In this document: piece by piece, positions 3,266 to 52,717 of the stretch | Position numbering within the stretch: the first letter of the stretch is position 1 | Layout of the letters: each line of letters begins with the position of its first letter | From: a virus | Length of the DNA: 64,000 nucleotides | Direction: 5' to 3' (one strand) | Virus record (IMG/VR): IMGVR_UViG_3300030451_004287 | Coordinates: 95,660-159,659 of that record | The notes under the pieces: model-generated | Told to the model about the DNA's origin: nothing | Databases searched by the model: none | Seen by the model: the letters and a program-made list of their open reading frames with translations, nothing else | Position numbers and translations under genes: made by a program

Positions 3266-4726
3266 ATGAAACTTTCAGACAGTGCTGCCGAACGAGCAAT
3301 CTTGTCAGGTATCTTTAATTATGGTGAAGATGCGTACTTTGACATTTGTGATCTCATACAAGAACAATCTTTTACTATAGATAGTAATATCTATATTTAC
3401 AAATGTTTTAAGCACATTTTTACCAATCATCAAAATCCTAAAATAGATTTAGCCTTAATATTTTCAGCGGCAGAAGAACTTTCTCTTTCTAAAATACTAA
3501 CTAAGAAAGATGAAGTACAACACATTAATGCGATAATTAACTTTCCTGTAGATAAAGATAATCTACGAAAGTTTGCTGCAAAGATAAAGAAATTAGAAAT
3601 AGCTAGACTGTTGCAACAGCAGTTGGAAGAAGCTAAAAACAAAGTTGTTAAAATTAGTGGTAATGAATCTGTTGGTAATATTGTAGGTATTGCTGAAGAT
3701 ATTATATTTAATTTTACATCAATGTTGAATGATGGTGAGGATGCGCCTGCTACGCTAGGTTCAGAAATTGATTCTTATCTAGAAGATATTATTAATAATC
3801 CTATAGATCAAATTGGAATACCAACAGGGTTTCCAGTGTATGATAAAGCTATCGGTGGAGGATTAAGAAAGAATACCGTAAACGTAATTGCCGCTAGACC
3901 TAAAACTGGAAAAACTCTTTTATCTGATAACATGAGTTTTAATATTGCTAACAACTGTGAAGTTCCTGTATTAAATATGGATACAGAAATGACAAGAGAA
4001 GACCATATACACAGAACCTTGGCTATGATGACAGATGTAGAGATCAATGAAATCGAAACTGGTCAATTCGCTAAGTCTCCATCTAAAAAAGAAAAGGTTA
4101 CAAAAGCAGCTAATAAACTAAAAAGCCTTAAAATTTTCCATAAATCTATAGCGGGTAAACCATTTGAAGATCAATTATCATTAATTCGTAGATGGTTAAT
4201 AAAAGATGTTGGATTAAATGAAGACGGAACAGCTAAAGATTGCGTGATATTTTATGACTACCTAAAACTTATGGATAGTCAAGGTGTAAGTCAAGACATG
4301 AAAGAATATCAAGTTCTTGGTTTTATGATGACCCAATTACACAACTTTGCTACAAAATATAAAGTACCAATCGTAGCTTTTGTTCAGTTGAACAGAGATG
4401 GTATTACTAAAGAAAGCACAGATACCGCTAGTGGTTCTGATAGAATTATTTGGTTATGTAGTAATTTTACTATATTTAAAAGAAAGTCTGATGAAGAAAT
4501 TGCTGAAGACGGACCAAATGCTGGTAACAGAAAACTCTTACCTGTAATTAGTAGACATGGTGGAGGTTTAGATGATAATGATTACATTAACTGTCACATG
4601 GAAGGACAGTTTGCAAAAATTAAAGAAGGTAAAACTAGATTAGAACTAATGAATAATATTAACTCAGACTCTGACATACAGGAGTATATTGGTGAAAACG
4701 ATGACCAAGAAATCCCATTCAACTGA
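3266..4726 (+). CDS. dnaB: DnaB-type replicative DNA helicase
   Basis: 486 residues in the DnaB layout: an N-terminal helical domain (about 1-150, opening with SDSAAERAILSGIF), a linker, and a RecA-like motor domain. Walker A is ARPKTGKT (about 210-217) and the Walker B-like strand is VIFYDYLKLM (about 328-337). A glutamine/arginine-rich segment with FVQLNRDG follows, as in DnaB motif 4. It should form the hexamer that unwinds the fork. The next gene is the primase, overlapping by 26 bases, so helicase and primase are co-expressed. Confidence 0.9.
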   Translation: MKLSDSAAERAILSGIFNYGEDAYFDICDLIQEQSFTIDSNIYIYKCFKHIFTNHQNPKIDLALIFSAAEELSLSKILTKKDEVQHINAIINFPVDKDNLRKFAAKIKKLEIARLLQQQLEEAKNKVVKISGNESVGNIVGIAEDIIFNFTSMLNDGEDAPATLGSEIDSYLEDIINNPIDQIGIPTGFPVYDKAIGGGLRKNTVNVIAARPKTGKTLLSDNMSFNIANNCEVPVLNMDTEMTREDHIHRTLAMMTDVEINEIETGQFAKSPSKKEKVTKAANKLKSLKIFHKSIAGKPFEDQLSLIRRWLIKDVGLNEDGTAKDCVIFYDYLKLMDSQGVSQDMKEYQVLGFMMTQLHNFATKYKVPIVAFVQLNRDGITKESTDTASGSDRIIWLCSNFTIFKRKSDEEIAEDGPNAGNRKLLPVISRHGGGLDDNDYINCHMEGQFAKIKEGKTRLELMNNINSDSDIQEYIGENDDQEIPFN

Positions 4727-5849
4727 TCAAAACAAACTTAAAGTTTTGTGTGATCTAATGTGTGATAATATTTTTGACTTATTAGATTACTTTGATATTG
4801 ACTATAAAGAAAATGGCAAGATGATTAGCATGCCATGTCCTATTCATGATGGAGATAATAAATCTGCACTTAATATATATCATGAGGGTGACAGCTATAG
4901 AGGTAATTGGAAATGTAGAACTCATGGTTGCGAAGAATGTTTTAAAGGATCTATCATAGGTTTTGTTAGAGGTGTTTTATCTAACAGAAAAAAGAACTGG
5001 ATAAAAAATGGAGATGATGTTGTATCATTTAAAGAAGCTTTAGATTTTTGCACCAAGTTTGTAAATAAAGATCTTGGTGATATCAAAATTTGTGAAGACA
5101 CTAAAAATAAAAAGAATTTTACTAATGTTATTAATAATATATCATCAGATAAACAAAACAATGTACCCACAATTAGTAGAAATAGTATTAGGTCATTACT
5201 AGAAATACCATCACAGTATTATATTAATAGGGGATATTCGACAGATATTTTAAATAAATACGATGTAGGTCTATGTAGTAGACCAAATAAAGAAATGTCG
5301 GGCAGGGTGGTAGTACCTATATACGATGCTAATTATAAAAGTATGATTGGATGTTCAGGTAGAAGTATTTATGATAAATGTAATAAATGCGGAGGGTTTC
5401 ACAATCCAGCAGATGCTTGTCCATCTTCTGAAAATTTGTGGAAATATTCTAAATGGAAACATAATTCTGGATTTAAAGCACAGGATCACCTGTATAACTT
5501 TTGGTTTGCTAAAGAGCATATGGCAAAATCGTCTTTTGCTATAATCTTAGAGAGTCCGGGTAATGTATGGAAGTTAGAAGAAAACGGTATACATAATAGT
5601 GTTGCTATTTTTGGAACAAATTTAAGCGCAAAACAAAAATTGTTATTAGATAGTTCTGGAGCTATGAGTCTTATTGTTATGATGGATAATGATGAAGCTG
5701 GTCATAAAGCAGCACAGGCTATTATAGAAAAATGTAATAGAACATATAATACATATTCTTTAACAGTTGAAAAAAATGATATTGGTGAAATGTCAAAAGA
5801 TGAAATACAAAATCAAATTGTTAATAAAATTAAGGAATTACCATTATGA
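4701..5849 (+). CDS. dnaG: DnaG-type DNA primase
   Basis: About 382 residues. A CHC2-type zinc finger lies near the N terminus (CPIH at about 46-49, CRTH at about 72-75, two more cysteines at 77 and 80). A TOPRIM fold follows in the C-terminal third: ILESPG and the acidic MMDNDEAG motif. There is an extra cysteine cluster (CNKCGGFH then C) in the middle, not part of the CHC2 finger. It lacks the long DnaB-binding C-terminal domain of cellular DnaG. Start: the frame is open to TTG 4689 and GTG 4692, but ATG 4701 is the first normal start. Confidence 0.88.
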   Translation: MTKKSHSTDQNKLKVLCDLMCDNIFDLLDYFDIDYKENGKMISMPCPIHDGDNKSALNIYHEGDSYRGNWKCRTHGCEECFKGSIIGFVRGVLSNRKKNWIKNGDDVVSFKEALDFCTKFVNKDLGDIKICEDTKNKKNFTNVINNISSDKQNNVPTISRNSIRSLLEIPSQYYINRGYSTDILNKYDVGLCSRPNKEMSGRVVVPIYDANYKSMIGCSGRSIYDKCNKCGGFHNPADACPSSENLWKYSKWKHNSGFKAQDHLYNFWFAKEHMAKSSFAIILESPGNVWKLEENGIHNSVAIFGTNLSAKQKLLLDSSGAMSLIVMMDNDEAGHKAAQAIIEKCNRTYNTYSLTVEKNDIGEMSKDEIQNQIVNKIKELPL

Positions 5850-6436: not shown

Positions 6437-7461
6437 TTACATACTTTCGTAGCTCATCATATAATACGCATAATATGTGTGAGCAACAATACTTTTTTGA
6501 TTATGTCTTAGGCTATAAACAGCCATCAAACAAAAAAGCAGATAAAGGAACGATTGTTCACAAAGCTTTAGAAATTTTAGCTTTTATTAAGTATACTGAA
6601 CAACAAGATAAAAAAACGTTTATAGATGATATTATTGGTGAAGTTAATATCAATAATTATAATTTAGATAATATTATTAAACAGGTTTATGACTTTTATT
6701 CAAGTAATTTTACACATCATGAATGGAAACCAATAGATTTTAAAGATTGTTATAAATGGACATACAAAGCTATTAATTATGCTAATGGTATGTTTGATCC
6801 GAGAAATAGAAACATACTATATCCTGAACAAAGATTTGATATAACTATAGATAAACCTTGGGCAAAATATGATTATGGAGATTTAAAAGGTGAACTTGCT
6901 ATTAAAGGCACTATAGATTTAATCACTAGACCTAGCGAAGACACATTAGAAATTATTGATTGGAAAACTGGTCGTAGATTAGATTGGGCCACAGGACAAG
7001 AGAAAACACAGGAGAAATTAGAAAAAGATCCACAGCTTATGATCTATTTCTACGCAGCTAAAAAACTATATCCAGAAATTAAAAATTGTATAGTTACAAT
7101 ATTCTTTATTAATGATGGTGGTCCTTTTAGCGTAAGTTTTCATAATAATGATTTATTAGCCACAGAAGATTTATTAAGAGAAAAATTTAATAGAATAAAA
7201 CAATGTAAGTTACCTAGACTAAGCAAAAGTTGGAAATGCACTAAATTGTGTATGTACGGTAAAAAAACTTTTGAAGATACACATATACCAGTAATTACGG
7301 AATATAGAGATAATCAAATCTGTAATGTTGGAGAGTCAATGACTATGTGCGAACAAGTTAAACACGATATCCAACTAAAAGGCATGAAGGAAGTGGTTGA
7401 CGAATACACAGTTCCCGGTTATAATGTAGGACATTACAAAGCACCCGGAAGTACGGAATGA
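6430..7461 (+). CDS. Cas4/AddB-like PD-(D/E)XK nuclease, probable Fe-S protein, non-ATG start
   Basis: About 343 residues. The RecB-family nuclease core is clear: GTIVHKALE helix, GTIDLI strand, then LEIIDWKTGR carrying the D...DxK residues, and a following Q-type helix (DPQLMIYFYAAK). One cysteine sits in the N-terminal helix (MCEQQYFF) and three near the C terminus (KCTKLC, then MC), the spacing used by Cas4/AddB/Dna2 nucleases to hold a 4Fe-4S cluster. The first ATG is 6475, but the conserved N-terminal element TYFRSSSYNT is encoded upstream of it, where no ATG, GTG or TTG exists back to the stop at 6415-6417. A rare start (ATC 6430, ATA 6433 or ATT 6436) after the AAGGGA at 6416-6421 is likely; 6430 is my best guess. 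A role in processing DNA ends in replication or recombination is expected. Confidence 0.85.
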   Translation: MIITYFRSSSYNTHNMCEQQYFFDYVLGYKQPSNKKADKGTIVHKALEILAFIKYTEQQDKKTFIDDIIGEVNINNYNLDNIIKQVYDFYSSNFTHHEWKPIDFKDCYKWTYKAINYANGMFDPRNRNILYPEQRFDITIDKPWAKYDYGDLKGELAIKGTIDLITRPSEDTLEIIDWKTGRRLDWATGQEKTQEKLEKDPQLMIYFYAAKKLYPEIKNCIVTIFFINDGGPFSVSFHNNDLLATEDLLREKFNRIKQCKLPRLSKSWKCTKLCMYGKKTFEDTHIPVITEYRDNQICNVGESMTMCEQVKHDIQLKGMKEVVDEYTVPGYNVGHYKAPGSTE

Positions 7462-9314
7462 AGAAATATATACCTTTGCATGTGCATACGCACTACTCTT
7501 TGTTAGATGGTCTCAGTAAACCTATAGATATTGCTAATAGATGTGAAAAAATAGGCGTTCCTAGTTGCGCTATCACAGATCATGGCAATATATCTGGATG
7601 TATTCAGTTCTATTCGACAATGAAAAGTCGTGGAATCAAACCGATACTAGGTACAGAATTATATCTATGCGACCAATCACCAGAGGTCAAAGATAATTCT
7701 AATAAAAAACTTTCTCATATAGTTCTGCTTGCTAAAAATTTGCAAGGATGGAAAGATCTAATCAATATAGTCTCTGCTTCAAATAAACCAGAACACTATT
7801 ATTACAAACCTAGACTTGATCTTAATAGTTTATATGAATTAGTAAATGGAAATATTATATGTTTGTGTGGACATCCCGGATCTTACTTAGCTAATCAAAT
7901 TTATTCAGAGGGTAAGTTCGTAGACGATAAAACTATTGAGTCTAAAATAAAAGAATTACAAGATGTGTTTGGACAAGATAATACTTTTGTAGAAATACAA
8001 ACAATGGATCAAACAAATGAGTATCAACAAAACATAGGATTGAAATTAAGAGACTTTTGTAAATCTAGACACATTAAAACCGTAGCTAGTTTAGACGCTC
8101 ATTACTGCGAATCTGAGGATAGTGCTGATCAAAGAATTTTATTATGTAGTAATCTTAAACTAACACTACCCCAAGTAGCATCAAAAATAACTAATGACGA
8201 AGAGTTTGGATTAAGTAGTTTTTTTAAGTCTGATCAATATCATATTCTATCTCATGAAGAAATCAACGCTGTAAATACAGAGGAAGAAATAGAAAACACT
8301 AACGTTATAAACGAAATGTGTGAAGAATATGAAATACTTAACAAACCTATTTTACCTAACTTTAATTGTCCAGAAGGATTTGCACCAGATGAATATTTAA
8401 GACAATTATGTAGAGATGGCTGGAAAGATAAAATACAAGATAGTATACCAAAAGAAAATCATGGCGAATATGTAGATAGAGTAAAGTATGAACTAGATGT
8501 TTTACAGTCGGCTAACCTATCTAGTTATTTTTTAATTGTTCAAGATATTGTGAACTATCTTCATAAGAAAGATTGGTTACCGGGTCCGGGTAGAGGTAGT
8601 GCTGCTGGTTGTTTAGTATCATACTTAATCGGCATAACTTCAATCGACCCTATTAAATACAATCTAATTTTTGAAAGATTCTATAATGCAGGGCGAAATA
8701 CTAAGGATAGAATTTCTATGCCTGATATTGATGTAGACGTACCAATCAATCATAGAGAAGAAATTATTAATTATATTAAAGATACTTACGGATCTAACAA
8801 AGTATCTCAAATGATTACATATAATACACTAAAAGGTAGAGGCGCACTGAAAGAAGTATTGAGAGTATATGGTAATATATCTTTTGAAGAAATGAATCAG
8901 ATTACTAAATGCTTACCTGATGAAGCTAAGATCGCTGATGAACTTCAAGAAATGAAAGATGAAAATGGAGAAGCGTCAATTATCCAATGGGCATTGGAAA
9001 ATAATTCTAAAAAGTTAAAAGATTGGTGTTATCTTAAAGATGATAAATTAGAAGGGCCTCTTGCCAAACGTTTTGAACAAGCTATTAGATTAGAAGGAAC
9101 TAAATACAATCAATCTAAACATGCTGCTGGAATTGCTATATCTAGACATGATCTGTCAACAGTATGTCCTATGATTTATGATACTAAAACAAAACAAAAT
9201 ATTGCTGGATTAGAAATGAATGATTTGGAATCATTAGGCATTGTAAAATTTGATATTCTTGGTATTGCTTTACTAGATAAAATGATGCAAATTAAACAAT
9301 ATCTGAAAGGTTAA
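7458..9314 (+). CDS. dnaE: DNA polymerase III alpha subunit, N-terminal half (PHP + palm)
   Basis: 618 residues covering the first half of a family C polymerase. The PHP domain has HVHTHYSLLDG (residues 8-18), ITDHGN (39-44) and SLDAHYC (211-217). The palm has GPGRGSAAG (376-384), MPDIDVDVP (421-429) and GIVKFDILG (594-602), which supply all three catalytic aspartates of the DnaE active site. The protein then ends, 16 residues after that last motif, where an ordinary DnaE continues into the fingers. The other half is at 10203-11795. The start overlaps the nuclease stop (ATGA). No intein-like sequence is present at the end. The two halves presumably associate to form one enzyme. Confidence 0.93.
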   Translation: MKKYIPLHVHTHYSLLDGLSKPIDIANRCEKIGVPSCAITDHGNISGCIQFYSTMKSRGIKPILGTELYLCDQSPEVKDNSNKKLSHIVLLAKNLQGWKDLINIVSASNKPEHYYYKPRLDLNSLYELVNGNIICLCGHPGSYLANQIYSEGKFVDDKTIESKIKELQDVFGQDNTFVEIQTMDQTNEYQQNIGLKLRDFCKSRHIKTVASLDAHYCESEDSADQRILLCSNLKLTLPQVASKITNDEEFGLSSFFKSDQYHILSHEEINAVNTEEEIENTNVINEMCEEYEILNKPILPNFNCPEGFAPDEYLRQLCRDGWKDKIQDSIPKENHGEYVDRVKYELDVLQSANLSSYFLIVQDIVNYLHKKDWLPGPGRGSAAGCLVSYLIGITSIDPIKYNLIFERFYNAGRNTKDRISMPDIDVDVPINHREEIINYIKDTYGSNKVSQMITYNTLKGRGALKEVLRVYGNISFEEMNQITKCLPDEAKIADELQEMKDENGEASIIQWALENNSKKLKDWCYLKDDKLEGPLAKRFEQAIRLEGTKYNQSKHAAGIAISRHDLSTVCPMIYDTKTKQNIAGLEMNDLESLGIVKFDILGIALLDKMMQIKQYLKG

Positions 9315-9317
9315 ATT

Positions 9318-9506
9318 ATGGTACAGTTTTATGTTATGCCTGAAGGCGATCCGTTTACCTTTAATGGTAAAAGATACAAGAAGATAAAAGAGGAAAGAGT
9401 TAGTTGTTGTAAAATTAAACATAATGCTTTAGACATTGATACTAATGAAAAGATAGCTATACAGCCTAAACAAGAAGTTACACCGGTGAGAAGTCATGAC
9501 GAATAA
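9318..9506 (+). CDS. Small conserved-looking phage protein
   Basis: 62 residues, predicted mostly beta: FTFNGKRYKKIKEERVSCCKI then a DTNEKIAI strand. It has the look of the small SH3-like or beta-barrel proteins common in phage replication operons. It lies between the polymerase half and the exonuclease, 3 bases after one and overlapping the other by 11. That placement makes it a candidate accessory factor of the polymerase, but the function is unknown. Confidence 0.65.
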   Translation: MVQFYVMPEGDPFTFNGKRYKKIKEERVSCCKIKHNALDIDTNEKIAIQPKQEVTPVRSHDE

Positions 9507-10206
9507 TAAAATTTGTGTTTTTGATTTTGAGACTGACGGTTCTGATCCAACAGAATGCAGTCCTGTTCAATTATCTTCAGTTATAGTAGATCCTATTAAG
9601 TTAGAAATAGTAAAAGATTCAGAATTTAATATTTACTTAAAGCCAGAAAAGCTATGCAAGGCTAAGGCTGTATCTATAAATAATCACCCGTATATGGATT
9701 CTGATATATTAGAATGGCACGGTAAGGTAAAAGGTGTAGATAAAGCCGAAATATTGGAGAGTTGGCTAACCTACCCGGATGCAAAACATTCTTGGAAACA
9801 ATTTATGGAGTATCTAGAGTCTTACCATCTGTTTAGAAGCGGCGGTAAAAAGACAAAGTTTTCTGCGCCTATAGCTTCAGGTTATAATATAATTAGTTTT
9901 GATATGAAGATTGTAGATCGCTTTGCCAAAAAATACGGAGGGTACGATAAAAAAGAAAAAGGTAATTCTATATTTCATCCTAGAGACAAAATTGATATCA
10001 TGAGTCTTGTATATATTTGGTTTAGATATATACCAGAAATTAAATCAATATCATTGGATAATATTAGAAACTATTTAGGTATTGACGCAACTAATGCTCA
10101 CGATGCCGTTAAAGATGTAACTGACTGTGCAGAAATACTTATCAGATTTTTGAAACTTCATAAAAATTTTGTTAGTAAGATAAAGTTTAAAGACTCATTT
10201 AAATGA
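9496..10206 (+). CDS. DnaQ-like 3'-5' exonuclease (DEDDh)
   Basis: 236 residues with the DEDD exonuclease motifs in order: ExoI VFDFETDG (D10, E12), ExoII in SGYNIISFDMKIVDRF (Asp), and ExoIII AHDAVKDVTD with the His and Asp of the DEDDh type. The fold is that of the epsilon proofreading subunit. It lies between the two halves of the polymerase gene and overlaps the second half by 4 bases, which strongly suggests it proofreads for this polymerase. In PolC the exonuclease is built into the chain; here it is a separate gene in the gap. Confidence 0.88.
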   Translation: MTNNKICVFDFETDGSDPTECSPVQLSSVIVDPIKLEIVKDSEFNIYLKPEKLCKAKAVSINNHPYMDSDILEWHGKVKGVDKAEILESWLTYPDAKHSWKQFMEYLESYHLFRSGGKKTKFSAPIASGYNIISFDMKIVDRFAKKYGGYDKKEKGNSIFHPRDKIDIMSLVYIWFRYIPEIKSISLDNIRNYLGIDATNAHDAVKDVTDCAEILIRFLKLHKNFVSKIKFKDSFK

Positions 10207-11795
10207 AAAAAATAAAATTTAAATCTTGTGGTTGTGTTTTCCCATCTCACAACAATCATATAGAATATAACATTGACATATCAAATCTAGATTTAGAATG
10301 TAAATCTACATGGGATATCATAGGTAGTGGTAATACTAAAGGATGTTTCCAGCTAGAGTCTAGATTAGGGCAAATGATGTCCAAAAAACTCAAGCCAGAA
10401 AACATAGAACAGTTAGCAGCTTTAATTAGTATTATGCGTCCCGGCTGTTTGGAGGCGTACAGAGATGGTAAAAGCGTTAGTGATCACTACATAGACAAAA
10501 AAAATGGTATTGAATCTATAGATTATTTTCACCCATCTCTAGAACCTGTATTAAAAACAACCTATGGAGAAATGATTTATCAAGAACAGGCGATGGAAAT
10601 AGCAAAAGTTATTGCTGGTTTTGGATTAGAAGAAGCGGATGTTCTTAGAAAAGCTATTGGTAAGAAAAAAGTAGATCTTATGAATAGCGTTAAAAAATCT
10701 TTTATACTAGGAGCACAAAAAACTAATGTAGTTTCTAAAGAAATCGCTGAAGAAATATTTGGATGGATCGAAAAAAGTCAAAGATATAGTTTTAATAAAT
10801 CTCATGCTATTAGTTATGCCTTGAATGCATACTTATCAGCATACTCTAAAGCACATTTTCCTGCTCATTTTTTTGCGTCTTATTTAAAGTTTGCGCAAGA
10901 CAAGATTGATCCAATGAAAGAGATTTATGAACTTATAAATAATTGCAGAGAAATGGATATTGATGTATACAAACCAGATTTTAGAAAGCTCTCAAGATCT
11001 TTTACTATAGATGATGATAAGAATATATATTTCGGTTTAACAAATATTAAAGGTGTTGGAGAATCAGTATGTAACAAAATAGAAATTTTAGTGAAAGATA
11101 TGGACTTGGAAAATATGTCATATCTAGAAACACTATTTAAAATTTTAGATAAAATCAATCAAACCGCTAGTAAAGCTATGATTAGTGTGGGTTGTTTTGA
11201 TTATTTAAATGTTGGTAGAAGAGAGATGTTATTTCATTTTAGTCTTATAAATGATCTGACAAAAAAAGAAAAAGATACTATATCAGCAAATCTTGAGTCA
11301 TTAGCTTCTTTAGAAGATTGTTTACATTTCCTTGACGATAAAGTAAACATAAGAAGAAAACAAAAAGTATTAGCTGTATTACATACTCTTAAAAATCCTC
11401 CATATAAACTTGAAGACAGTTGTCTGTGGATAGCAGATCAAGAAAATCAACTACTGGGCATAAGTATTACATGCTCAAAAATAGATGAATACAGTTTAGA
11501 AAATGTTAACTCAACATGTAGAGATTTAAATAATGATAAATGTATTTATAAGAATATTATTCTAGGAATAGAAATTAAAGAAGTTAATGTAATTAAAACA
11601 AAACGCGGAGCAAATCCGGGTCAAGAAATGTGTTTTGCTAAAGTGTCAGATAATACTGGAGGCGTAGATATTGTTGTATTTCCAGAACAATACGCTAAAT
11701 ATAAAGACGTACTACAAACTGACACAACAGCTATCCTAAGCCTAGAAAAATCTAAAAATGACAGTCTTATAGTTAAAAAAATTTGGCAGTTATAA
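10203..11795 (+). CDS. dnaE: DNA polymerase III alpha subunit, C-terminal half (fingers + HhH + OB)
   Basis: 530 residues that continue DnaE exactly where the first half stops. After a short lead (residues 1-22, with SCGC) it enters the fingers: GCFQLESRLG (47-56), ALISIMRPG (73-81), YQEQAM (126-131), then FNKSHAISYALNAYLSAYSK (197-216). A helix-hairpin-helix follows (GLTNIKGVGESV, about 278-289). An OB-fold-like segment is near the C terminus (FAKVSDNTGGVDIVVFPEQ). It has no catalytic aspartate of its own, so it needs the product of 7458-9314. The start overlaps the exonuclease stop (ATGA). Confidence 0.92.
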   Translation: MKKIKFKSCGCVFPSHNNHIEYNIDISNLDLECKSTWDIIGSGNTKGCFQLESRLGQMMSKKLKPENIEQLAALISIMRPGCLEAYRDGKSVSDHYIDKKNGIESIDYFHPSLEPVLKTTYGEMIYQEQAMEIAKVIAGFGLEEADVLRKAIGKKKVDLMNSVKKSFILGAQKTNVVSKEIAEEIFGWIEKSQRYSFNKSHAISYALNAYLSAYSKAHFPAHFFASYLKFAQDKIDPMKEIYELINNCREMDIDVYKPDFRKLSRSFTIDDDKNIYFGLTNIKGVGESVCNKIEILVKDMDLENMSYLETLFKILDKINQTASKAMISVGCFDYLNVGRREMLFHFSLINDLTKKEKDTISANLESLASLEDCLHFLDDKVNIRRKQKVLAVLHTLKNPPYKLEDSCLWIADQENQLLGISITCSKIDEYSLENVNSTCRDLNNDKCIYKNIILGIEIKEVNVIKTKRGANPGQEMCFAKVSDNTGGVDIVVFPEQYAKYKDVLQTDTTAILSLEKSKNDSLIVKKIWQL

Positions 11796-11870: not shown

Positions 11871-12245
11871 ATGAATCTTATTGTATTAAAGGGTAATCTT
11901 GCTCGTGATCCAGACCTGCGATCAATCACCACAGGTAACAGGGATACTTCTGTTGTAAATTTTACGGTAGCTGTTTCTAGGGAATATAGGAAATCAGACG
12001 GTACTACTGATAAGAATACAACATTTGTAAATTGCGAAGCATGGGACAGTGGAGCAGAGGCTATTGCATCTACTTTTAAAAAGGGCGATCTAGTTATGCT
12101 AGAAGGTTCTTTGCGTAATGATAACTGGGAAAAAGATGGTGTTAAGCATTCATCTATGAAAGTTCGTGTCAGCAATTTTGGTAAAATTCAAAAAACTAAA
12201 AAGTCTTCCGCAAAGACAGAAGATGAAGCTGTAACAGCATTCTAG
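11871..12245 (+). CDS. ssb: Single-stranded DNA-binding protein
   Basis: 124 residues with the SSB OB-fold pattern: MNLIVLKGNLARDPDLR at the N terminus, VVNFTVAVSREYR, a DKNTTFVNCEAW strand and GDLVMLEGSLRND. The C terminus is short (DEAVTAF) with an acidic stretch and a final Phe, reminiscent of but shorter than the cellular partner-binding tip. It coats single-stranded DNA at the fork. It has its own promoter and the strongest ribosome site of the plus-strand block, consistent with high expression. Confidence 0.93.
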   Translation: MNLIVLKGNLARDPDLRSITTGNRDTSVVNFTVAVSREYRKSDGTTDKNTTFVNCEAWDSGAEAIASTFKKGDLVMLEGSLRNDNWEKDGVKHSSMKVRVSNFGKIQKTKKSSAKTEDEAVTAF

Positions 12246-19185: not shown

Positions 19186-22100
19186 TTAAAATCCACCATC
19201 TTTAGTATATGGATCACCATCTGGTCCGTATACACTTGGTCCAGTATCTTCCTCACATTCGCCACTATCAACATTTTTTAAACAACTTTGCTCAATTCCA
19301 TCTTTCGCAAGAGGAATCGTTACATTTTTATAATTTCTTCTACCATGAGGGTCAAGGAAATCCGCTGTAGTATGAACATAACAATCTCCTTTACAACTTG
19401 GTTTAACTTTATATATAAAACCTACATTACTAGCTCCACCTCTTGGTTGAGCAGGCCAAGTACCATCATACTCTTCTGGAGTATTAGGCCATCTGCCATT
19501 CCAACAAATTCGTCTATCAGGAAATTTTGTTCCAAATGTACCTTCTTGCCATTTGTAACCAGCATTGTTACCTCCCAGATAGCCGGGCAAATTGGTATTG
19601 GTTCCGGGGAAATTTGGTAGTTTACCTTGAAGCCAAGGGAAGTTTTCTATAGCTTCGCCGCCACCAAATTGACCTTCAAGCATAGCCTGTACTACCGCTT
19701 GAACCTCTTCAGCCGTAATAGTTTCTCCCTCATTTTGTGCAATTATAAGTATTTGTTGAGTATATAATTGTTGATACAGATAATGATGTATATATTCCTG
19801 TTTGGGTTCAAAAAATAATTCTTCTGCATCCCAATTAACAGTAATTGAACCACCATTAGCTCCCTCTGCGGTAAAACCCCAGCTACCGGGATCTGCACAC
19901 TCAACAAAACCTGTGCCATAATAACTATTTTCACAACCTTTACAACTCGCTAAGTAATCATCTCTAACCTGCCACCACCACTGTTCACAATACGGAGCAT
20001 AGTTTCTTGGAAAGGTTATGCCTTGATCTGCAAGAGCTGCTGCTTTTTGTTTTTGAAATTCGTCAAGTGCTGAACCTACATACCACTGTTCTGATTTTAG
20101 CACTGTTCCATCGTCCTGAAAACCAAAAGTCCCAGTCATATACGACTCATCAGGAACACTAGTTACTCCAGTTAGTGTCCATTTCCATCGACCTCCACCT
20201 CCTGTAGCTTGCATACATTCTAATGTTAATGTAGCTGACGTACCACCATCAATGTCGTTATCATTCCAAGTGCTTTGATCTGTTGGGTCTCCATCACCCC
20301 AAGGATTTGTCGAACCTAGCAGACAATGAGATCCTCCAAAATTTATTGTTACTACAGGACATCCTGAAGATTTAGGTCTGTCACAACAATTCATAACAAC
20401 TGCGCCAGTATCAGGATCAGTATATCTCCCTCCAAAATCTATACTCGTAGTATTCACAGAAAATCTATAATCACCGTGAATCATATTAGAATGAACATAT
20501 TCTGCTGCAGGACCGGGTTGAACTTCACAATCATCATTAATCCCAACAATCATACCAAAGTCTGATTGTGGTCCAGCAGTGTCAAACTGAGCTTCTGCAG
20601 TATCTGGATCCCACATGCTTGGAAGACAACCTCCACCACCTGTTGTTCCTCCGGGACTAATTGACATATATATAGCTGTGCGTCTACTCCATACTTGTTG
20701 ACCAAAATCTTGATGGTCAAATATGCCTACTTTTTTAAGTATATCACGGTCACCTGCCTGAACAACTTGACCAAAAGAACTAGCTACACCAACTGGTACT
20801 CCACCGCCCATATTAGCCAATCTACTCGCAGAAAATGGACTACAAGCACAATTACTACAACAATAGTAAGGATCGTTATCACCACAAACATCGGCTGTGC
20901 TTTGTCTAGCATAATTTAAAGGCATATTTTCATAAGGCTTACCACCGCCCTCATTTGTACAATAAGGTCCCGGACCACCCTTGCTTCCTCTAATATCTAT
21001 AAACTCACCTTCATCATTAAATACCGGATACCTAATTAAAAAACCGGTAGAGCTGTCATAGTAAGGCTCTTTCCAATCTACATTAAAATCTTCTTGTCTT
21101 TTAAAATTAAAATCACCAGCTAATACTGCTCCATAACAAGGGTTATATCCACCAAAATGATCAAAATCTGGTCTTATTTCTTTCATTTGACTAGTAATAA
21201 GCAATCCACTACAACCATATTTTAGAGGTAAATCTAAATCATAATACTTATTTCTATCTAAATTATGAACATGAAGACTATCATCGTCACCAGTTTTTTC
21301 TTCTCCATCAATAGTTAGCCCTGCTCTCGACCCAATAATATTAGCATGTTGATAACAAGTACTAGAAGCACCATTATCTATCATAATAGTACCAGTGCCT
21401 AAAGGTTTTATTTTATTAATGTGTCTATTATCCAAGAAAAGACTAACTTCAGGAGTAAGTGTTAATGCTCCTTCACCTATCAACTTATCTCCATCAGGGT
21501 CTATAATACCTGTTATAACTCCTTCACATGTAACTAATAACTGCGCGTATCCTCCTTTACCATAGTAATAACCTTGACAAGCATCATCGAATGGGAAATT
21601 ATAAGGATAAAAATTAGTTGTATTTGCGTCACCAACAGGATTAAATTTTAATGATTGAGGACTATATGGTAACTCTCCACCAGCTCCATCGTCTTTATTT
21701 GTTCTTACAAATTGAAAATATCTAGGATCATAAGGATAATCTTTTAACATTGCAGAATATGGAGTAATAGGCAAATGATCTCTTGACTCTTCTTCACGCA
21801 TTTGCTTATTACTAACTCCTAAATAAGCTCCGTATAATCTACTATATGTATTATCATGACCATGCCTAGTAATATAGTCTGGTCTATGAGTAGGTACTAT
21901 AGTATGACACTCTCCAAAAACAGCACTTTCACCTCTAAATCCTTGAACATAAGCATGATAATCATGAGTGCATTGAGTGAAAGGAAATGGCACCAAAGAA
22001 GCATTAGGACCTTCTGCTATAGCTTTAGCTTGATCTGCAAGATCATTAGTAAACTTTTTATAAAAAGGCAAAGTTTCTGCATGTACAGACGCTGGGACTA

Positions 22101-24612
22101 TATTGTATACTGAACCGTAATTCGGAATATAATACATTTGCATGTACCCTTGACAACCACCGGGTACTGGTAGAAATAAAGGTAGATCAAGCGGCCCAAC
22201 AGCAGTTTTAGTACTATCTGTTACGTTAGCAGAAAGAGGTAGTCTTTGCATAGTATTAATATAAAAAGAATTTGTCCAAAGAGGTCTGTTAGATCTTAAA
22301 GCACAACTCATATAAACTTCGTTATCAGATACTTTGGTAACTCCATCTCCTCCTCGTATATTCTGCATATCACCAAAAAATACCATTTCATAAAAAGGCA
22401 TATCATTACCCGGCAAACCTCGTGGACTTGGAGGAGCCTGATCACCATTAAAATGAGTTGTTAAAGGATTACCATCTCTGTCTTTAACTTGACACACTAC
22501 AGAACCGGGAACTTTCGTACCGGCATCTCTTTGCGCTTGATAATCTCCATTAGCAGGTAAATAATAACCGTCAGTCTCACTAAAAGGCACAACATGTAGT
22601 ACCTTACTACCTTCTGGAACAAAAGGACCAAATACAGGCATACCAGCATATAAATTTGATACATCATCAATACTACTTAATTCAAATAAACCATTAGCTC
22701 TAGCATTAGCTGGACTTCCCATAAACTGCCCACCAGCAAATATAAACTGAGTTAAATAATTAGGATGAACGCACCATTTAGCAAAATCTGTTCTTCCTTT
22801 AATAAAGCCAGTAGTCATTTTGGTTTCATCAGCAATTTTTGAATTAGAACCTGCACTACTATCAATGCCATGAAAAGCTAAATCTGTTAAATTTGTTACA
22901 TCTATAATTTTATCAGGACCATTTGTTTTAATTCTTAAATTAAATGTAGCATGACCGGCATTTTCAAGATCACCCAAATTCATAACTTCAACAATATATT
23001 GCCTAACATGCATACTATCGTTATGGTTAAATCTCCAATTATTAAAATTATTTACATCTTCTAATTTATAACAGTGTGGGTGTTGACGGTCTCCTCTAGC
23101 TTCTAAATTGTGTGAAAAATAATTTGGACCACCTGTACTTATATATGGTTTAGCTGTTCCATCTACACTTGCTCTAAATCGTCCGGGAGGGGTATCTACT
23201 TGTGCCTCTGGTTCTTGGTAAGCAGCAGGCCAGTTCCTTCTGTGAACATAATAAAGATTTAAATGAATATCTGTATTACTAACATTTTGCCATTCTACTT
23301 CTTCACTTGAAGTTAACTGTATACGATTAGTTACATCATTAAGTGCTTTTTCTTCATCACTTGCATCTTCTGGAAAATCTCTTACTTGTCCGAATTGGTC
23401 CACTCGTGGCTTGCTGTATAAATAATGAATACCTCTTTCTGATGGTACAAAAAATGGCGTATTGTCAAAATAGTTTAACATTCTAAACTTATATTTACCG
23501 GGCCATTTAGTGCTTTTTAGAAAAGGGTTTGCGTCAGCTATACCACTTATAATTATTGACTTTTGTTCATCATCTGTAAATTGTAATGTAGGAACACCAA
23601 TTTCCATTCTTAAGTCTTGCAGAAATGGTATAAGATTTGCTGCATCTTCAAGACCCCCATCAATATCACCTTGGCGACGTCTAAGGTAACTATTAAATAA
23701 ATGAAATTGATCACTATTAAAATCAGTAGCATCTCCCATTTCACCTAATACAATTTTATCGTAACCAACATCTCCAGCAAGAGCTATATATGGATTATCA
23801 ATAATATTTCCATTACCCATATCCCATGTTGTGTTCCAAGGATTAACTCTAGGATCTCTCATAGCATTCCAAAGATTTCTACCAAATACTTCTTTGCCTA
23901 ATAATTGAGCATGATCTAAACCTATGTTTTCGACACCGTTAAACTTAAAACTTCTATCGTAATCAATTCCTTCATCAGTTTCTGCTGGTACAATAATCTC
24001 ATCGCCATCAAAAGTTACACTAATAGAATCAATAGGCTTTCTGATAAATTTTTCACCCAAAATAGGATGATCATATTTTGCATGATTTCCTTGAACGTCT
24101 TCTATATCAGCAGTAAATAAAGTAGGAACATTAAATAAAGTTGTAGAAACATTTACATCATTTGGGTTATCTTTATCTTCGGAAAAAACTGGTGTAGAAG
24201 TCACAGTACTAATACAAGTACCACGATCTTGGGTGGGTTTTTCAAATTTTTTATAAAAACCTGATTCTGCATGTTTAGCTAAAGCTAATGGCCCAAATGT
24301 AGCATCATCCTTTAATATTGATTTATCTTCGTCAACAAGACCTAAAGTTTTTAATAAATGTCCACAATATTTATTAATAATATTAAAAGTTTCTAATTTA
24401 TCTTGTTGATTTAATTCTTTTAAAGACCCATTAATTTCGTGAGTATCTAAATTTATAAAAGTTACTTCAAATTGTGGGTCGTAATTTTTTAATATTATAC
24501 TAGATAATGTCCTAGCACTATCTGAAACTAGTAAATCCTTATCATCTCGAATCCTTAAAAGAGTTAATAATAACTTCTCATCTGAAATTTCATCATATTT
24601 TATATTATACAT
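19186..24612 (-). CDS. Giant cysteine-rich tail-tip protein (1808 aa)
   Basis: 1808 residues with no family I can name. The first 100 residues are helical and lysine-rich. The rest is beta-rich with many Gly, Pro, Asn and aromatic residues, as in receptor-binding and tail-tip proteins. Cysteines are frequent in the second half, in clusters such as YYCCSNCACS (about residues 1245-1256) and NCCDRPKSSGC (about 1410), suggesting disulphides or metal sites. It sits at the end of the tail module, 8 bases after the other giant. Adsorption or tail-tip structure is the likely role, by position and composition. Confidence 0.75.
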   Translation of the reverse strand: MYNIKYDEISDEKLLLTLLRIRDDKDLLVSDSARTLSSIILKNYDPQFEVTFINLDTHEINGSLKELNQQDKLETFNIINKYCGHLLKTLGLVDEDKSILKDDATFGPLALAKHAESGFYKKFEKPTQDRGTCISTVTSTPVFSEDKDNPNDVNVSTTLFNVPTLFTADIEDVQGNHAKYDHPILGEKFIRKPIDSISVTFDGDEIIVPAETDEGIDYDRSFKFNGVENIGLDHAQLLGKEVFGRNLWNAMRDPRVNPWNTTWDMGNGNIIDNPYIALAGDVGYDKIVLGEMGDATDFNSDQFHLFNSYLRRRQGDIDGGLEDAANLIPFLQDLRMEIGVPTLQFTDDEQKSIIISGIADANPFLKSTKWPGKYKFRMLNYFDNTPFFVPSERGIHYLYSKPRVDQFGQVRDFPEDASDEEKALNDVTNRIQLTSSEEVEWQNVSNTDIHLNLYYVHRRNWPAAYQEPEAQVDTPPGRFRASVDGTAKPYISTGGPNYFSHNLEARGDRQHPHCYKLEDVNNFNNWRFNHNDSMHVRQYIVEVMNLGDLENAGHATFNLRIKTNGPDKIIDVTNLTDLAFHGIDSSAGSNSKIADETKMTTGFIKGRTDFAKWCVHPNYLTQFIFAGGQFMGSPANARANGLFELSSIDDVSNLYAGMPVFGPFVPEGSKVLHVVPFSETDGYYLPANGDYQAQRDAGTKVPGSVVCQVKDRDGNPLTTHFNGDQAPPSPRGLPGNDMPFYEMVFFGDMQNIRGGDGVTKVSDNEVYMSCALRSNRPLWTNSFYINTMQRLPLSANVTDSTKTAVGPLDLPLFLPVPGGCQGYMQMYYIPNYGSVYNIVPASVHAETLPFYKKFTNDLADQAKAIAEGPNASLVPFPFTQCTHDYHAYVQGFRGESAVFGECHTIVPTHRPDYITRHGHDNTYSRLYGAYLGVSNKQMREEESRDHLPITPYSAMLKDYPYDPRYFQFVRTNKDDGAGGELPYSPQSLKFNPVGDANTTNFYPYNFPFDDACQGYYYGKGGYAQLLVTCEGVITGIIDPDGDKLIGEGALTLTPEVSLFLDNRHINKIKPLGTGTIMIDNGASSTCYQHANIIGSRAGLTIDGEEKTGDDDSLHVHNLDRNKYYDLDLPLKYGCSGLLITSQMKEIRPDFDHFGGYNPCYGAVLAGDFNFKRQEDFNVDWKEPYYDSSTGFLIRYPVFNDEGEFIDIRGSKGGPGPYCTNEGGGKPYENMPLNYARQSTADVCGDNDPYYCCSNCACSPFSASRLANMGGGVPVGVASSFGQVVQAGDRDILKKVGIFDHQDFGQQVWSRRTAIYMSISPGGTTGGGGCLPSMWDPDTAEAQFDTAGPQSDFGMIVGINDDCEVQPGPAAEYVHSNMIHGDYRFSVNTTSIDFGGRYTDPDTGAVVMNCCDRPKSSGCPVVTINFGGSHCLLGSTNPWGDGDPTDQSTWNDNDIDGGTSATLTLECMQATGGGGRWKWTLTGVTSVPDESYMTGTFGFQDDGTVLKSEQWYVGSALDEFQKQKAAALADQGITFPRNYAPYCEQWWWQVRDDYLASCKGCENSYYGTGFVECADPGSWGFTAEGANGGSITVNWDAEELFFEPKQEYIHHYLYQQLYTQQILIIAQNEGETITAEEVQAVVQAMLEGQFGGGEAIENFPWLQGKLPNFPGTNTNLPGYLGGNNAGYKWQEGTFGTKFPDRRICWNGRWPNTPEEYDGTWPAQPRGGASNVGFIYKVKPSCKGDCYVHTTADFLDPHGRRNYKNVTIPLAKDGIEQSCLKNVDSGECEEDTGPSVYGPDGDPYTKDGGF

Positions 24613-24619: not shown

Positions 24620-27600
24620 TTATATTATTTGAGAGCATGTTCCTACGCCTCTATATCTCACTAAATTAGTTCCTTGTATTCCAAGAAAGAATGTTGGAAC
24701 CTCACCAACTTCTGGAACATAGTTTGAATTAAAATCAAATCCAGCTACACTACTAGCATGTCCTACAGCAGATGAATGTTTTCCTATACTAACTAAACAA
24801 GGGTTAGCTTCATTAATACCTGCTATAATAATAGGAGTATCATCAGGAATAGTTACAGGAATAATATTCATATAGTCTGTTACTGTAATCTGATTAGCAG
24901 TATCATTAGTTTGTTCAAACTGATTAGCACCATCACAAATTTGAGCTACAAAAGTACCGCCTGTACTAACAGAACCACAAGTTCTAGCAGGAGTTAATGT
25001 TGCGCTACCACCACCAGCAGACTTTTGATTCATAACAATATATTTTCCATCATCATAATACACATATAATAAATCATCTACAGCTCCTGTCATACCAAGA
25101 TAATCATATACGTCTATTTCAGCATTTCTTACATCAGCAGAAAGATCTTCACCTTCTGGACCCCACATAGAAATTCCATCATAATACGCTTTTTTACCGG
25201 GACTTTTAAATGTTATAGTTGTATTAGCAGCTAGTTCACCTGACGTAATACAAGGTGAAATTTCGATAGTATTACTACCAACTGATACAATAGTGGCATC
25301 GGAGGGAATGTTTGAACCTTCCACAGTCATGCCCGGAGATAAATCACTTACATCTTCAAATTCAATAGTTGTTGAAGAACAATCTTCAAACCCAAATACT
25401 CTTGTAACTACAGTTTTAGTAATTTCAATCTCACCTGTTCCACCAGCCGCCATATTTACTAGTTCAGCTTTAGCTTGTCCAAAAGCATTTAATGTTTCTT
25501 TAAGTCTTACTAGTAAAACTTTATTTTGAGTAGGAGCTACCCAAACACCTCTATGTCTATCAAATCTTAAATCTATTGGTCCTACGGGCCAAGTCTTTGG
25601 ATTGCTCATCCAATTTTTCATAAATTTATCTGTTAAGCCAGTATCTCTAAACCTACCTATAACAGTATCTTCAGCACAATCATTTGAGTTAGGTATAGGC
25701 TTGCCATTTGTGTCATATCCCCAACCTTGTAAAACTAAAGGTCCTCTAAAAGCATTAAATCTCTGGTCTGTAAAAGTTTGTCTATCTTGAAGAGTAACTT
25801 CTCTTTCAGTACTACCTTGCATATCAAGAACTTTAATATAGTCGCCTTTAGTAAAGTTTCTAACACTTTGACCAACGGTATTATACTCAACAACGTAACC
25901 TGATATTGAACCATTATATCTATTATTATCTACATTATTTATTCCAGTTCCTTTCCACATTAAAGGGAAATTGCCAGTTGATGTCCAAGGATGTAAAAAT
26001 GTTCTGTTTATTCTTAAATCAAATATAAGTTCAGGTCTAATTGATGGAACTTGTAAAGGAGGAATACTAGAATATGATCTAGAAAGCATACCCTGTCTAG
26101 GATCAGCGGTAAAAACATTAGAAGATCCTGTAAAAGTCAAAGCTAAGTCTACTGCTAGTGTTGTATCTTCTGTGATAGCAGGTGTAAAAGTTACGCTATT
26201 CTCACCAACTGAAGAAATAACAGCGCCTTGAGGAATACCCTCACCACTAATTACCATTCCGGGTTCAAGATTATCTACACTACCTATTTCAACAGTAGTA
26301 GATGTAGCTTCTGCGGTTCCAACTACCTCAGTAGTTACAGTTGTTGCAAAAGTTACTGCAGCATTAGTGTTTATAACATATCTTGGCAACATTCTAGTAC
26401 CATCAGCAGATAATCCATTAGCATCTAGAGGAACTCCTCCACTTAATGATACAGGAAGAAAGAAAGAATCTAAACTGTTTATTGCGATTCTGCTATAATA
26501 CGGTGTTTGATAATGATCAAGTGATGCTGATTTTATTTCAGCTCTAGGTCTTTTCTTATTAGTGTTACCTAGTGTATTAGGTTCAGGCTTAAGACTTGCT
26601 ATCGGAGTAACACTATCGCTAGAACTACTATTGCTGTCATGAACTAAATTTTTACGAACTATATTTTCACCACCACAAGCATTAGCTTTTCCATCATTTA
26701 AAGTGTAAGCACTATATATTAATTTACCGCTAGTTGCATCAACACTTCTGCTAGACCTTTCATTAGGATTCTTAGAGTGTCCTTCGCCTGCACTGTTTTT
26801 CTTTCCTCCTTTACCTTTACCTCTATAATGATCTCTGTTTTCAGCGACAGAAATTCTTTCGTCTTCTAAAGCTACTTTATTTCTAAAAGCAATTTCTTTT
26901 CTTCTTTTCTTTTCATCTCTAACTTTAAGATTCATATCTCTTTTTACAGCAACTAAATCCTTAATAGCATCTCGTACATATTTATCTACTTTTCCAAATT
27001 CTTTAGAGTATGTTTGAAAACTTAGCGATGTAGTTGCTCCATTAGATCCATAGTTTAAATTCATGTTACTAAGCAACGGACCTAAATTAGTTTGACCTAA
27101 TTGTAAATCTCTACCAAAATCAATATGTGTAATCATAGGTACAGTTAAGCTAGCTTTTTCTTCAAACAATCTAGTTTTTAATCCATCTAGCGCTATTTTT
27201 TGACCGTTATTAACCATATCGCTCCAAGTTTTTGGCACAATATTAGCAGCTTTTAAATTGTTAACAAATTGCCAAGGAGCTAAATCGGTATCTACAATTT
27301 CTGTTCCACCACTAACATTACCGATTACTGAAAAAGGACCATATATTTGTGTTTGACTTTCAAAAGGTATATGAACATCACGAGGTATAAGACACATTGG
27401 ATTCATGTCCATAAACTCTTTAGCACTAATATTTACAATAGCACCATCTTTTTTATTTGGGTCAGGAGGATCGTCAGGTACTTCATTGTTTCCTCTAAAA
27501 GTCGCATTTGCTTCTTGTGCTTCTGTTTTAGTTAAATTAGTGTCTTCTCCATTGAGCCTAGCTATCTGTACATCAAGTGCATCACCTGTAATTTCTTCAT

Positions 27601-33147: not shown

Positions 33148-36100
33148 TTATGCTCGTACTATTTTAATGTTTCCGTTAGTAGCTTCATCGATTGAAAATG
33201 CAACAGCATCAAACGTATTGTTTTGAATAACTGTAGCTAACTCATCAATTTGACCAACAAATTGTGTACCATCAACAACTACTCGATTAGTTAGATCGCC
33301 CTCTAATTTAACAGTTTGACCTGCGGTTCCTCCACCTCTTTGTTGACCGCCTCCTTCTCCACCACCGCCTTTATTTCCTCCTCTACGACCGCCTTGATTT
33401 GCTCCGCTAGTAGGTGGAGATGAACCAGCAGGAGGAGCTTTAGTTTGGTCTGATCCAGCACCTCCGTTACCATTACCGTTACCATTATTACCAGCTTCTC
33501 TTTCATCAACAAATGTTTTCATTTTTTCATTGAATTTATCAAACAACTCAGCTGACTCAGTCATAGCTGCATGTAATTTACTTCTAGTAAGATCTAAAAT
33601 TTCTTGAGCAGCTTTTCTTCTTAGCTCTAATTCTTTCTCTTGAACTGCTTTAAGTTCATCAAACATCGCAAGTCTTTTTTCTTTTTCTGCCTTAGCTTCT
33701 TCTTCAAGCTCTTTTGCTCTTGCATCTTTTTCTACATCTCTTTCTCTAACCGCACGCGCAAGCTTAGCACCTCTTCCTCCTGCTCGTTCATTAGCAGTAA
33801 GAGCTCGTTCTCGTTCTTCATCATATGTTTTTTGGCTAATCAAACCAGCCTCAAGTTGAGCATCAAGATCTCGTAAGAAGTGGGCTAAAGGTTCTGCTCC
33901 TCCACGACCTGCTAGAGCTTCTTGACGATTAAATGCTCTTTCTTTAGTTCCTTCAGGATCTAAAACAGCATCAATTAAAGACTCCTGTTGAGCTTTTAGC
34001 ATTTTTGTTCGTTCTGCAAGAGCTTCAACAGCAGCATCAAATTTAGCCGTTGAGTTTACCATACCTTCTAGTGCTGCTTTTGCTTCGGCTGATTGATTAC
34101 CTAGTTCACCAATCCTTTCATTAGTTTTGATGATCTCGTTATCTATTGCTTTAGTATCTGCTCCCATTGGCATCGCATCACGCTGCCTCATTAAACTGTC
34201 TCGTTTTGCGGTTGCAGCGTCTATTTCGTTGGGTAAGTCTTCAGTTAATCTGTTTCTAAGAGCTCTAGCCATTTGTGCGTCATCCATCCTAGATACTGAG
34301 TCTCTGCGTTCCTTGAGAGTTTCACCCTCACCAAGACCAGCTTGGAGAGCTCGCATTTCTGCATCAGACCTCGCCTGTCTAGCTCTGTCAGCAGCAGTTA
34401 CTCTTTCACCTCTAGCTTCTTGTATAGCAAAATCAGATTCAAATCTGGCTTCATTTTGACGCCTAGTAATATCATTTAGTTTTCCTAAAGCTTGAGCAGT
34501 TTGATTAGCAATAGTACTTAACTGTTTTAATGATTCAAATTTAATTTGTGCAATACCTTGTAATATTTTATCTGCTTCTGCTGCTGTTTTGTTAAATTCT
34601 TCAAGAGCTTCATCATCACCAGTAGCTATAGCAGTAGCAGCAGATTGTGCTAAGTTATCTTTAATTTTATCAAAATCTTCACCTAAGCCTGTACCTATAT
34701 TTTCAAAACGTTTTTCAAGTTCTTGTGCGAGAAATTCTGGATCAGCGTCTGGACCAGCAACACGATCAATATCATCTATAGCCTTTTTAAGTTGTACCAT
34801 AGCTGCTGCTTGTTGTAACTGAAGAGTGTTACCACCAGCTTGAGCAAGACCTCCAGTAACTGAAGCAAATCTGTCAGCACTAAATGCAGCAGGATTGTTT
34901 AAAACTTCTGAGTTTGTATCTCTAAGACTTTTTGTTGCGTCAAATTGTCCATTTAATACATCTACATAACTTTGATTTACAGCTACAATTTCTTTTAAAT
35001 CATTATTTAATATTTTAAAAACTTGTGTCATGCGAGCGGCCGTGGCTGTCATGCTAGCCATTTCTTGATTTAATGTTTTTATAGTCTGTGCAGTAAGTAA
35101 ATTTTGTCTAGCTTCTCGTTCTCTATTAGCGACAAAAGATTTAAACTGCTTTTCCAAATCCGCATCAAAACCGTCATCAATTTGAGCTTGAGCCTCTGTT
35201 CCTGTAATTCCTCGTTGACTTAAAAATTCTGTTCTTAAACTATCTTCTAATTCTTCTGTGCTCATGCCAAGATTTTGTGCAGCTGTAGCTAAAAGACTGG
35301 TACTACTGCTTAAGTCTGAAAGTAATGCTTTTTGCTCCTCTCCTCTTTGCATATTTAATTCTTCAATAGCTTTGTTAAATACATCTGGGTCATCAAATGC
35401 TCCAACAGTTAATCCTTCTTCTTCTGCTAATGTTACGTTCGATAACATGCCGGGAAGCTCTTGACTAAAAGTTTTAGTATAGTTCAAAAGCTCTTTAGCG
35501 TTTTGAGCACGAGCCCTAGATTCAGCAGCTATAGCTTCTTCACTTTTAAAGAATAAATTTGAGACAGTCTGAAAACCACCATACAAAAGAGTTCCAGCAT
35601 ATATCAGATTGTTAAACATACCCGCGGTTTGCTGCACAGGACCTGTCGAACTCTGACCCGGTATGCTTCCCGGACTACCCATAGGAGTATTTCTTCTAGG
35701 ACCCCGGTGTCCTTGAGTTGATCCGCTAGTTGTAGGACGAGAACTCGCGGTAGGAGCTTGGGTTCTGTTATGAGTCATAGGTCTACTAACAGGAGGTCTA
35801 ACAGCAGTTGCTGTATTTATTGGAGCATTTTTAAGCTGACCTGTTGCTCTTAAACCTAAACGCTGTGCTTGAATTAGCGCAGCTTTACCAAAAGTTCTAA
35901 TTGAAGTTAAAGCTGTAGCTACTACACCACTAAGACTAGTAAAAGCTGTAGTAAGAGTAGGAATAATAGCTACTAATCCTGCTCCTATAGCACCAGCAGT
36001 AGCACCAGCAGCAACAGCCAAGGAAGCTTGACCTCCAACTCTAAGTCCTTTAGCTATACCATCACCCTTTTCTGTTAACTCCTTATATTCTTCGCTACCA

Positions 36101-47370: not shown

Positions 47371-47384
47371 AATTCATAATTATC

Positions 47385-48074: not shown

Positions 48075-48111
48075 TTTTAACCTCTATTTGTTTTGGGGGT
48101 AATATTACATT

Positions 48112-48120: not shown

Positions 48121-48138
48121 ATATTAGACTGTTTTATA

Positions 48139-52256: not shown

Positions 52257-52263
52257 ATTATAA

Positions 52264-52709: not shown

Positions 52710-52717
52710 AATATCAT

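What the first reader, a model, noticed from the sequence alone, without database searches (positions are those of the whole stretch)
7458..11795. DNA polymerase III alpha subunit split into two genes with a proofreading exonuclease gene in the gap
Seen: 7458-9314 ends 16 residues after GIVKFDILG, having supplied the PHP domain and all three palm aspartates. 10203-11795 begins just before GCFQLESR and carries fingers, HhH and OB segments. Together they cover a DnaE without visible loss, the break falling in the loop between palm and fingers. Between them lie a 62-residue gene and a DEDDh exonuclease. Neither end looks like an intein half (no Cys-start splicing block, no terminal HN or AN). Inference: a two-chain family C polymerase, possibly with the exonuclease and small protein as subunits, gene order resembling a PolC chain taken apart.
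Basis: partly seen in the sequence, partly recalled or inferred. Interest (0 to 1): 0.85.

Follow-up and report, generated by a model that had tools for sequence, protein, structure and literature searches.

The report
Phage replicative DNA polymerase in pieces
A large group of uncultured aquatic phages makes its DNA-copying enzyme, a relative of the bacterial replicase DnaE, as two separate proteins instead of one, with a predicted proofreading nuclease gene always between the two halves and in some relatives a further cut into three; this gives biologists a natural two- or three-chain version of a replicase that is otherwise almost always a single chain.

Summary
Window 7458-9314 (PHP + palm, all three catalytic aspartates) and 10203-11795 (fingers, HhH, OB) together cover E. 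coli DnaE residues ~5-579 and ~582-1056. It is not a sequencing error, intein or intron: about 160 loci fetched from IMG/VR and MAGs show the same cut, with no uncut member. In 107 distinct complete pairs the palm and finger catalytic residues checked are invariant. The split sequences form one clade (43 representatives, SH-aLRT 100) on a long stem. A DEDDh exonuclease gene lies in the gap in every contig with all parts readable, usually overlapping or abutting the C-half gene (94 of 106 distinct junctions). The 62-aa gene is absent from the deepest-branching subgroup found, so it is not an obligatory subunit. PolA and PolB were not found in ten contigs of 150 kb or more. Some relatives are cut again inside the N half, by a split intein with an endonuclease gene or by a LAGLIDADG gene without intein (three chains). 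'PolC taken apart' is not supported. Precedents for polymerases in pieces exist (T4-like gp43A/B; a minimal split Pol III in jumbo phages; isolate phiT1, apparently convergent), so this is a new variant of a known kind. Assembly and activity are inferred.

The parts
7458..9314 (+). N-terminal half of DnaE: PHP domain with its metal-ligand set kept, and the palm with D423, D425 and D599 (E. coli D401, D403, D555)
9318..9506 (+). small protein S (62 aa), predicted small beta barrel weakly resembling EF-P/eIF5A; about half of its relatives match PHROG 2183; absent in the deepest-branching subgroup found
9496..10206 (+). DEDDh (RNase_T/DnaQ-like) exonuclease X; best PHROG match 192, 'DNA polymerase exonuclease subunit'; overlaps S by 11 nt and C by 4 nt
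10203..11795 (+). C-terminal half of DnaE: fingers, HhH and OB; ends soon after the position aligned to E. coli residue 1056, with no tau-binding C-terminal domain
10203..10268 (+). N-terminal extension of the C half (about 22 aa, MKKIKFKSCGCVFPSHNNHIEY), predicted beta hairpin with the conserved CxC pair (C9, C11); a third conserved Cys (C33) follows; absent from single-chain DnaE
3266..5849 (+). upstream neighbours: DnaB-like helicase (3266-4726) and Toprim primase (4689-5849)
6475..7461 (+). PD-(D/E)XK exonuclease, overlapping the N-half start by 4 nt
11871..12245 (+). single-strand DNA binding protein (PHROG 44)

Best explanation
The virus replicates its genome with a DnaE-type family C polymerase made as two polypeptides. 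The N chain (PHP + palm, metal-binding aspartates) and the C chain (fingers, HhH, OB) are translated from one operon and associate non-covalently across the palm-fingers interface to form the active site. The cut lies in the surface loop between the helix after the third aspartate and the finger domain; an added Cys-rich hairpin at the start of the C chain probably caps or docks that site. The DEDDh exonuclease, made just before the C chain by coupled translation, is most likely the proofreading subunit. Shown: the split, its conservation, monophyly, intact active-site residues, gene order and close spacing, purifying selection. Inferred: assembly, activity, role of the exonuclease and of the hairpin. 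Most likely origin: one old break in the ancestor of this phage clade, perhaps by a homing endonuclease, since the same gene has been cut twice more in sub-lineages with endonuclease genes in the gaps.
For: Same break, order N-(S)-X-C and no single-chain form in all loci with the parts readable. 155 complete sets, 107 distinct: E. coli positions D401, D403, D555, R362, S364, K553, Q687, E688, R709, K714, H760 conserved 107/107; PHP ligands kept in most. Split rows one side of a branch, SH-aLRT 100, stem 1.61. pN/pS for window vs L002: N 0.13, X 0.13, C 0.20, S 0.40. X/C overlap or gap of 10 nt or less in 94 of 106 distinct junctions. No PolA, PolB in the own contig or nine others of 150 kb or more. 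No Rfam intron in six loci. C-half model folds as DnaE. Isolate phiT1 encodes a DnaE cut in the same loop, on another branch. Precedent for activity: split gp43A/gp43B of Aeromonas phage 25 co-purify and polymerise (PMC2988022).
Against: No expression, binding or activity data exist; no complex could be modelled here. Assignment of X as proofreading subunit rests on neighbourhood and motifs. In some contigs X and C are separated by other genes (L072, L169, L183), so tight coupling is not strictly needed. The contigs are metagenomic and mostly incomplete, so another polymerase could lie outside them.
Confidence: 0.87

Rival explanations
1. The halves are joined by splicing (split intein or intron containing S and X), so the working enzyme is a normal single-chain DnaE.
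For: In a sub-lineage (L010, L041, L043) a different site of the same gene does carry a split intein with an endonuclease gene between the parts.
Against: At the main break there is no Hint domain, no intein-sized tail, no Cys-start or HN-end; Rfam finds no intron in six loci; S, X and the start of C are overlapping protein genes under selection; gaps in relatives hold apparently unrelated genes, e.g. a uracil-DNA-glycosylase-like ORF.
Confidence: 0.04
2. The second half, or both, are repurposed or decaying and the phage relies on the host polymerase.
For: PHP and finger modules could have other uses; a few contigs look damaged (L081 lacks the palm aspartate motif; L061 has an interrupted exonuclease).
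Against: Catalytic residues checked in both halves are invariant in 107 distinct sets, selection is purifying, and the genes sit in a helicase-primase-polymerase-SSB operon.
Confidence: 0.05
3. The exonuclease is not a subunit; it is a neighbour caught in the gap, like the genes found there in some relatives.
For: The gap tolerates several apparently unrelated genes, judged by eye from sequence; S is present in one part of the clade and absent in another.
Against: X is the one gene found in the gap throughout, and is adjacent to C in 94 of 106 distinct junctions.
Confidence: 0.25
4. The two genes are a PolC chain taken apart.
For: Polymerase and exonuclease are encoded together.
Against: Sequence and fold place it with DnaE; PolC's exonuclease sits inside PHP (PMC3919608).
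Confidence: 0.01

Closest known systems
Bacterial DnaE (Pol III alpha) and single-chain DnaE of phages
   Same: PHP, palm, fingers, HhH, OB in the same order; catalytic residues kept
   Different: two chains; break at E. coli ~579/582; Cys hairpin at the start of the C chain; no tau-binding C-terminal domain
Rossellomorea phage phiT1 DnaE (gp20 + gp18, PV767480)
   Same: same loop cut, small ORF between, two CDS annotated as alpha subunit
   Different: different branch of the tree with single-chain neighbours, so apparently an independent break; no exonuclease in the gap
Minimal split Pol III alpha of group 2.2 jumbo phages (PMC7824862)
   Same: family C core encoded as two proteins
   Different: that one lacks PHP and other domains, its genes lie far apart, and it accompanies a family B polymerase; ours is full-domain, one operon, and no PolA/PolB was found. 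Atu_ph07 gives only a weak palm match and no finger-domain match
Genes-in-pieces of T4-like phages (gp43A/gp43B, nrdA of Aeh1; PMC2988022)
   Same: replication enzyme made as two chains, endonuclease insertion linked to the break
   Different: family B polymerase or RNR; no endonuclease in the main gap here
Split-intein DnaE of cyanobacteria and 'fractured genes' with split inteins (Dassa et al. 2009, from memory; paper not held)
   Same: broken dnaE; the second break in L010/L041/L043 looks like that arrangement
   Different: the main break has no intein and no ligation signal

Membership tests
DnaE-type family C polymerase | PHP, palm with three aspartates, fingers, HhH, OB | tested here: met
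   over two chains; the OB match is below Pfam's cut-off but sequence and fold searches align that part
DnaE-type family C polymerase | single polypeptide | tested here: not met
DnaE1 (E. coli type) | C-terminal tau-binding domain | tested here: not met
   C half ends soon after the position aligned to E. coli 1056
PolC | exonuclease inserted in the PHP domain | tested here: not met
   PHP uninterrupted; exonuclease is a separate gene after the palm
Split-intein DnaE | N-intein and C-intein flanking the break | tested here: not met
   no Hint/intein domain, N half ends 16 aa after the DILG motif; met only at a different break in L010/L041
Genes-in-pieces by homing endonuclease | endonuclease gene in the gap | tested here: not met
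   main gap holds S and X only; met for the second break in L016/L033 (LAGLIDADG)
Genes-in-pieces by homing endonuclease | separate chains assemble into an active enzyme | not testable with these tools
   needs protein work
Minimal split Pol III of jumbo phages | PHP lacking, distant genes, family B polymerase present | tested here: not met
   PHP present, genes adjacent, no PF00136 in ten contigs of 150 kb or more
DnaQ/epsilon-like proofreading exonuclease | DEDDh motifs | tested here: met
   FDFETD, NI..FD and AHDA..D conserved
DnaQ/epsilon-like proofreading exonuclease | binds the polymerase | not testable with these tools
   only gene spacing is seen

The most novel reading that the evidence does not exclude
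A phage clade uses a full-size C-family replicase as an obligate two-chain, and in sub-lineages three-chain, enzyme with a dedicated exonuclease encoded inside the break, held together by a lineage-specific Cys-rich hairpin; this would be a stable evolved subunit architecture that has persisted since the clade's ancestor and shows where a DnaE can be divided.
Probability: 0.6. Interest if true: 0.75.

Novelty: new variant of a known kind. Interest (0 to 1): 0.64.

Why it matters
C-family replicases are the polymerases that copy bacterial chromosomes and are otherwise known almost entirely as single chains. A conserved two-chain form, with an apparently independent cut in the same loop in a cultured phage and a third cut next to the catalytic aspartates, marks natural division points, makes assembly of the active site testable part by part, and offers a natural split replicase to study. 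It also documents repeated endonuclease-linked fragmentation of one replication gene.

Tried and rejected
Sequencing error: rejected, 107 distinct complete sets. Intein at the main break: rejected. Intron: no Rfam hit in six loci, gap fully coding. PolC origin: rejected by sequence, fold and domain order. The 62-aa protein as obligatory subunit: rejected, absent in the deepest-branching subgroup found; a relative of it had no match in INPHARED. Sister single-chain polymerase close to the clade: none found with the deeper alignment scan, which returned only the best 80 of 492. Bacillus phage Jayan as another split: cut just before the catalytic DIDTD motif and nearly identical to intact PS1, probably an intron; not counted. 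L081/L186 (lost palm motif) left out as damaged. A host search by DUF1559 in nine relatives was uninformative because the control also failed. Dassa et al. 2009 could not be read.

Full report
Observation. Pfam finds PHP and the DnaE palm domain in the first, the finger domain and HhH (and a sub-threshold OB match) in the last, and an RNase_T exonuclease in the third. The N half aligns to E. coli DnaE 5-562, with its end at about 579, and the C half to 582-1056. The cut lies after the helix that follows the third catalytic aspartate and before the finger domain. Foldseek of the AlphaFold model of the C half retrieves DnaE structures (M. tuberculosis, Taq, E. coli) far above PolC.

Conservation. 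Two scans of IMG/VR with the separate halves and a third with a profile of C halves gave about 160 distinct loci. All loci with the parts readable show the order N-(S)-X-C; the deeper scan gave 46 NSXC, 26 NXC and 4 with N further cut. No single-chain member appeared; the only single-chain ORF in the first set was Pseudomonas phage Y1, fetched as an outside reference. Three contigs binned into MAGs (Chitinophagia, Alphaproteobacteria, Flavobacteriales) show the same arrangement; such bins may hold stray phage contigs, so they do not settle the host.

Function of the parts. In 107 distinct complete N+C sets the catalytic aspartates and the palm and finger residues listed under the best explanation are invariant. 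The PHP metal ligands are kept in most sets, whereas E. coli DnaE has lost several (R10, F44, R135, R203), so the PHP domain may itself bind metal. For window against L002, pN/pS is 0.13 (N), 0.13 (X), 0.20 (C) and 0.40 (S); S in a more distant pair (L005/L008) gives 0.86, so selection on S is less sure. X keeps the DEDDh motifs, and X and C overlap or lie within 10 nt in 94 of 106 distinct junctions, a layout that suggests coupled translation.

Tree. On 1047 columns, 43 split representatives (dereplicated at 85% identity of C) form one side of a branch with SH-aLRT 100 and a stem of 1.61 changes per column. This is a quick search without bootstrap, and several outside rows are long branches. 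Isolate phiT1, cut in the same loop with a 49-aa ORF between its halves, lies on another branch near a single-chain Moorella phage, so its break looks independent; that placement is itself on a long branch.

Further cuts. In L010, L041 and L043 the N half is divided at GPGRG/SAAG by a split intein (Cys start, HN end, +1 Ser) with a putative PD-(D/E)XK endonuclease ORF between (the intein and nuclease matches are below Pfam's cut-offs, the splice-site residues are read from the sequence). In L016, the L033 group and L109 the N half is divided before MPDIDVD with a LAGLIDADG ORF between and no intein; the N2 piece has a ~90-aa extension that aligns without gaps between L016 and L033 (pN/pS 0.62), and Rfam found no intron. 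I read these as three-chain polymerases, with less certainty than the main break.

Extension of C. The C half begins with about 22 residues not present in single-chain DnaE. In the 12-member alignment the two Cys of CxC and a later Cys are invariant; in the 51-member alignment C33 is invariant and C9 and C11 are at 90% or more. The model shows strands at 2-5 and 12-16. A zinc or docking role is inference.

Small protein S. Predicted as a compact beta fold (pLDDT 91); best PDB matches are EF-P/eIF5A but with no E-value under 0.001. Half of its relatives (17 of 34) match PHROG 2183, unknown function. The deepest-branching subgroup found (L097, L088 and kin) lacks it.

Gap contents in relatives. 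Some contigs have extra genes between N, X and C. Naming of these ORFs (UDG-like, QueF-like, ThyX-like, nucleotidyltransferase-like) is by eye from sequence, without a family search. They show that the halves stay functional genes when up to 3.9 kb apart.

Context. The operon reads DnaB-like helicase, Toprim primase, dNMP kinase, PD-(D/E)XK exonuclease, N, S, X, C, SSB. Pfam models for PolA, PolB and the beta clamp found nothing in the own 159.7-kb contig, nor PolA/PolB in nine relatives of 150 kb or more. The contig carries PSCyt1/PSCyt2/PSD1 and DUF1501 genes and, by sequence, a DUF1559-like gene; these are typical of Planctomycetota (from general knowledge), which hints at the host of this phage.

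Literature. The held library gives PMC7824862 (split minimal Pol III in jumbo phages, distant genes, beside PolB), PMC2988022 (split T4-like polymerase active in vitro) and PMC3919608 (survey of bacterial Pol III alpha, where the regular split form noted is the intein-split cyanobacterial DnaE). No held paper describing this arrangement was found in eight searches; most subscription papers and Dassa et al. 2009 are not held, so priority cannot be claimed firmly.

Noticed in passing
L010:2044-5120; L041:2053-5113: split intein with a free-standing putative PD-(D/E)XK endonuclease ORF inside the polymerase N half
   Followed up: partly
L016:2116-5109; L033:2102-5095; L109:1942-4932: N half cut again before MPDIDVD with a LAGLIDADG ORF in the gap and no intein: polymerase apparently in three chains
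   Followed up: partly
L133:3986-7268 (Rossellomorea phage phiT1): cultured phage with DnaE cut in the same loop, apparently independently; could serve as a laboratory model
   Followed up: yes
contig G000:C1:1-18000 against window 47000-64000: left end of the contig repeats the right end at about 69% nucleotide identity: a chimeric assembly or a duplicated structural module
   Followed up: partly
L105:9378-13029; G000:C1:39446-40429: PSCyt1/2-PSD1, DUF1501 and DUF1559-like genes typical of Planctomycetota in a phage contig; hints at the host
   Followed up: partly
L081:3205-4933: N half lacks about 35 residues with the palm aspartate motif: deletion or assembly fault
   Followed up: no
L061:5308-5977: exonuclease X interrupted, only its ends readable
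   Followed up: no
window 19186-24612, 24620-30502, 33148-39573: three very long minus-strand ORFs (1808, 1960, 2141 aa), probably structural or tail proteins; not examined
   Followed up: no
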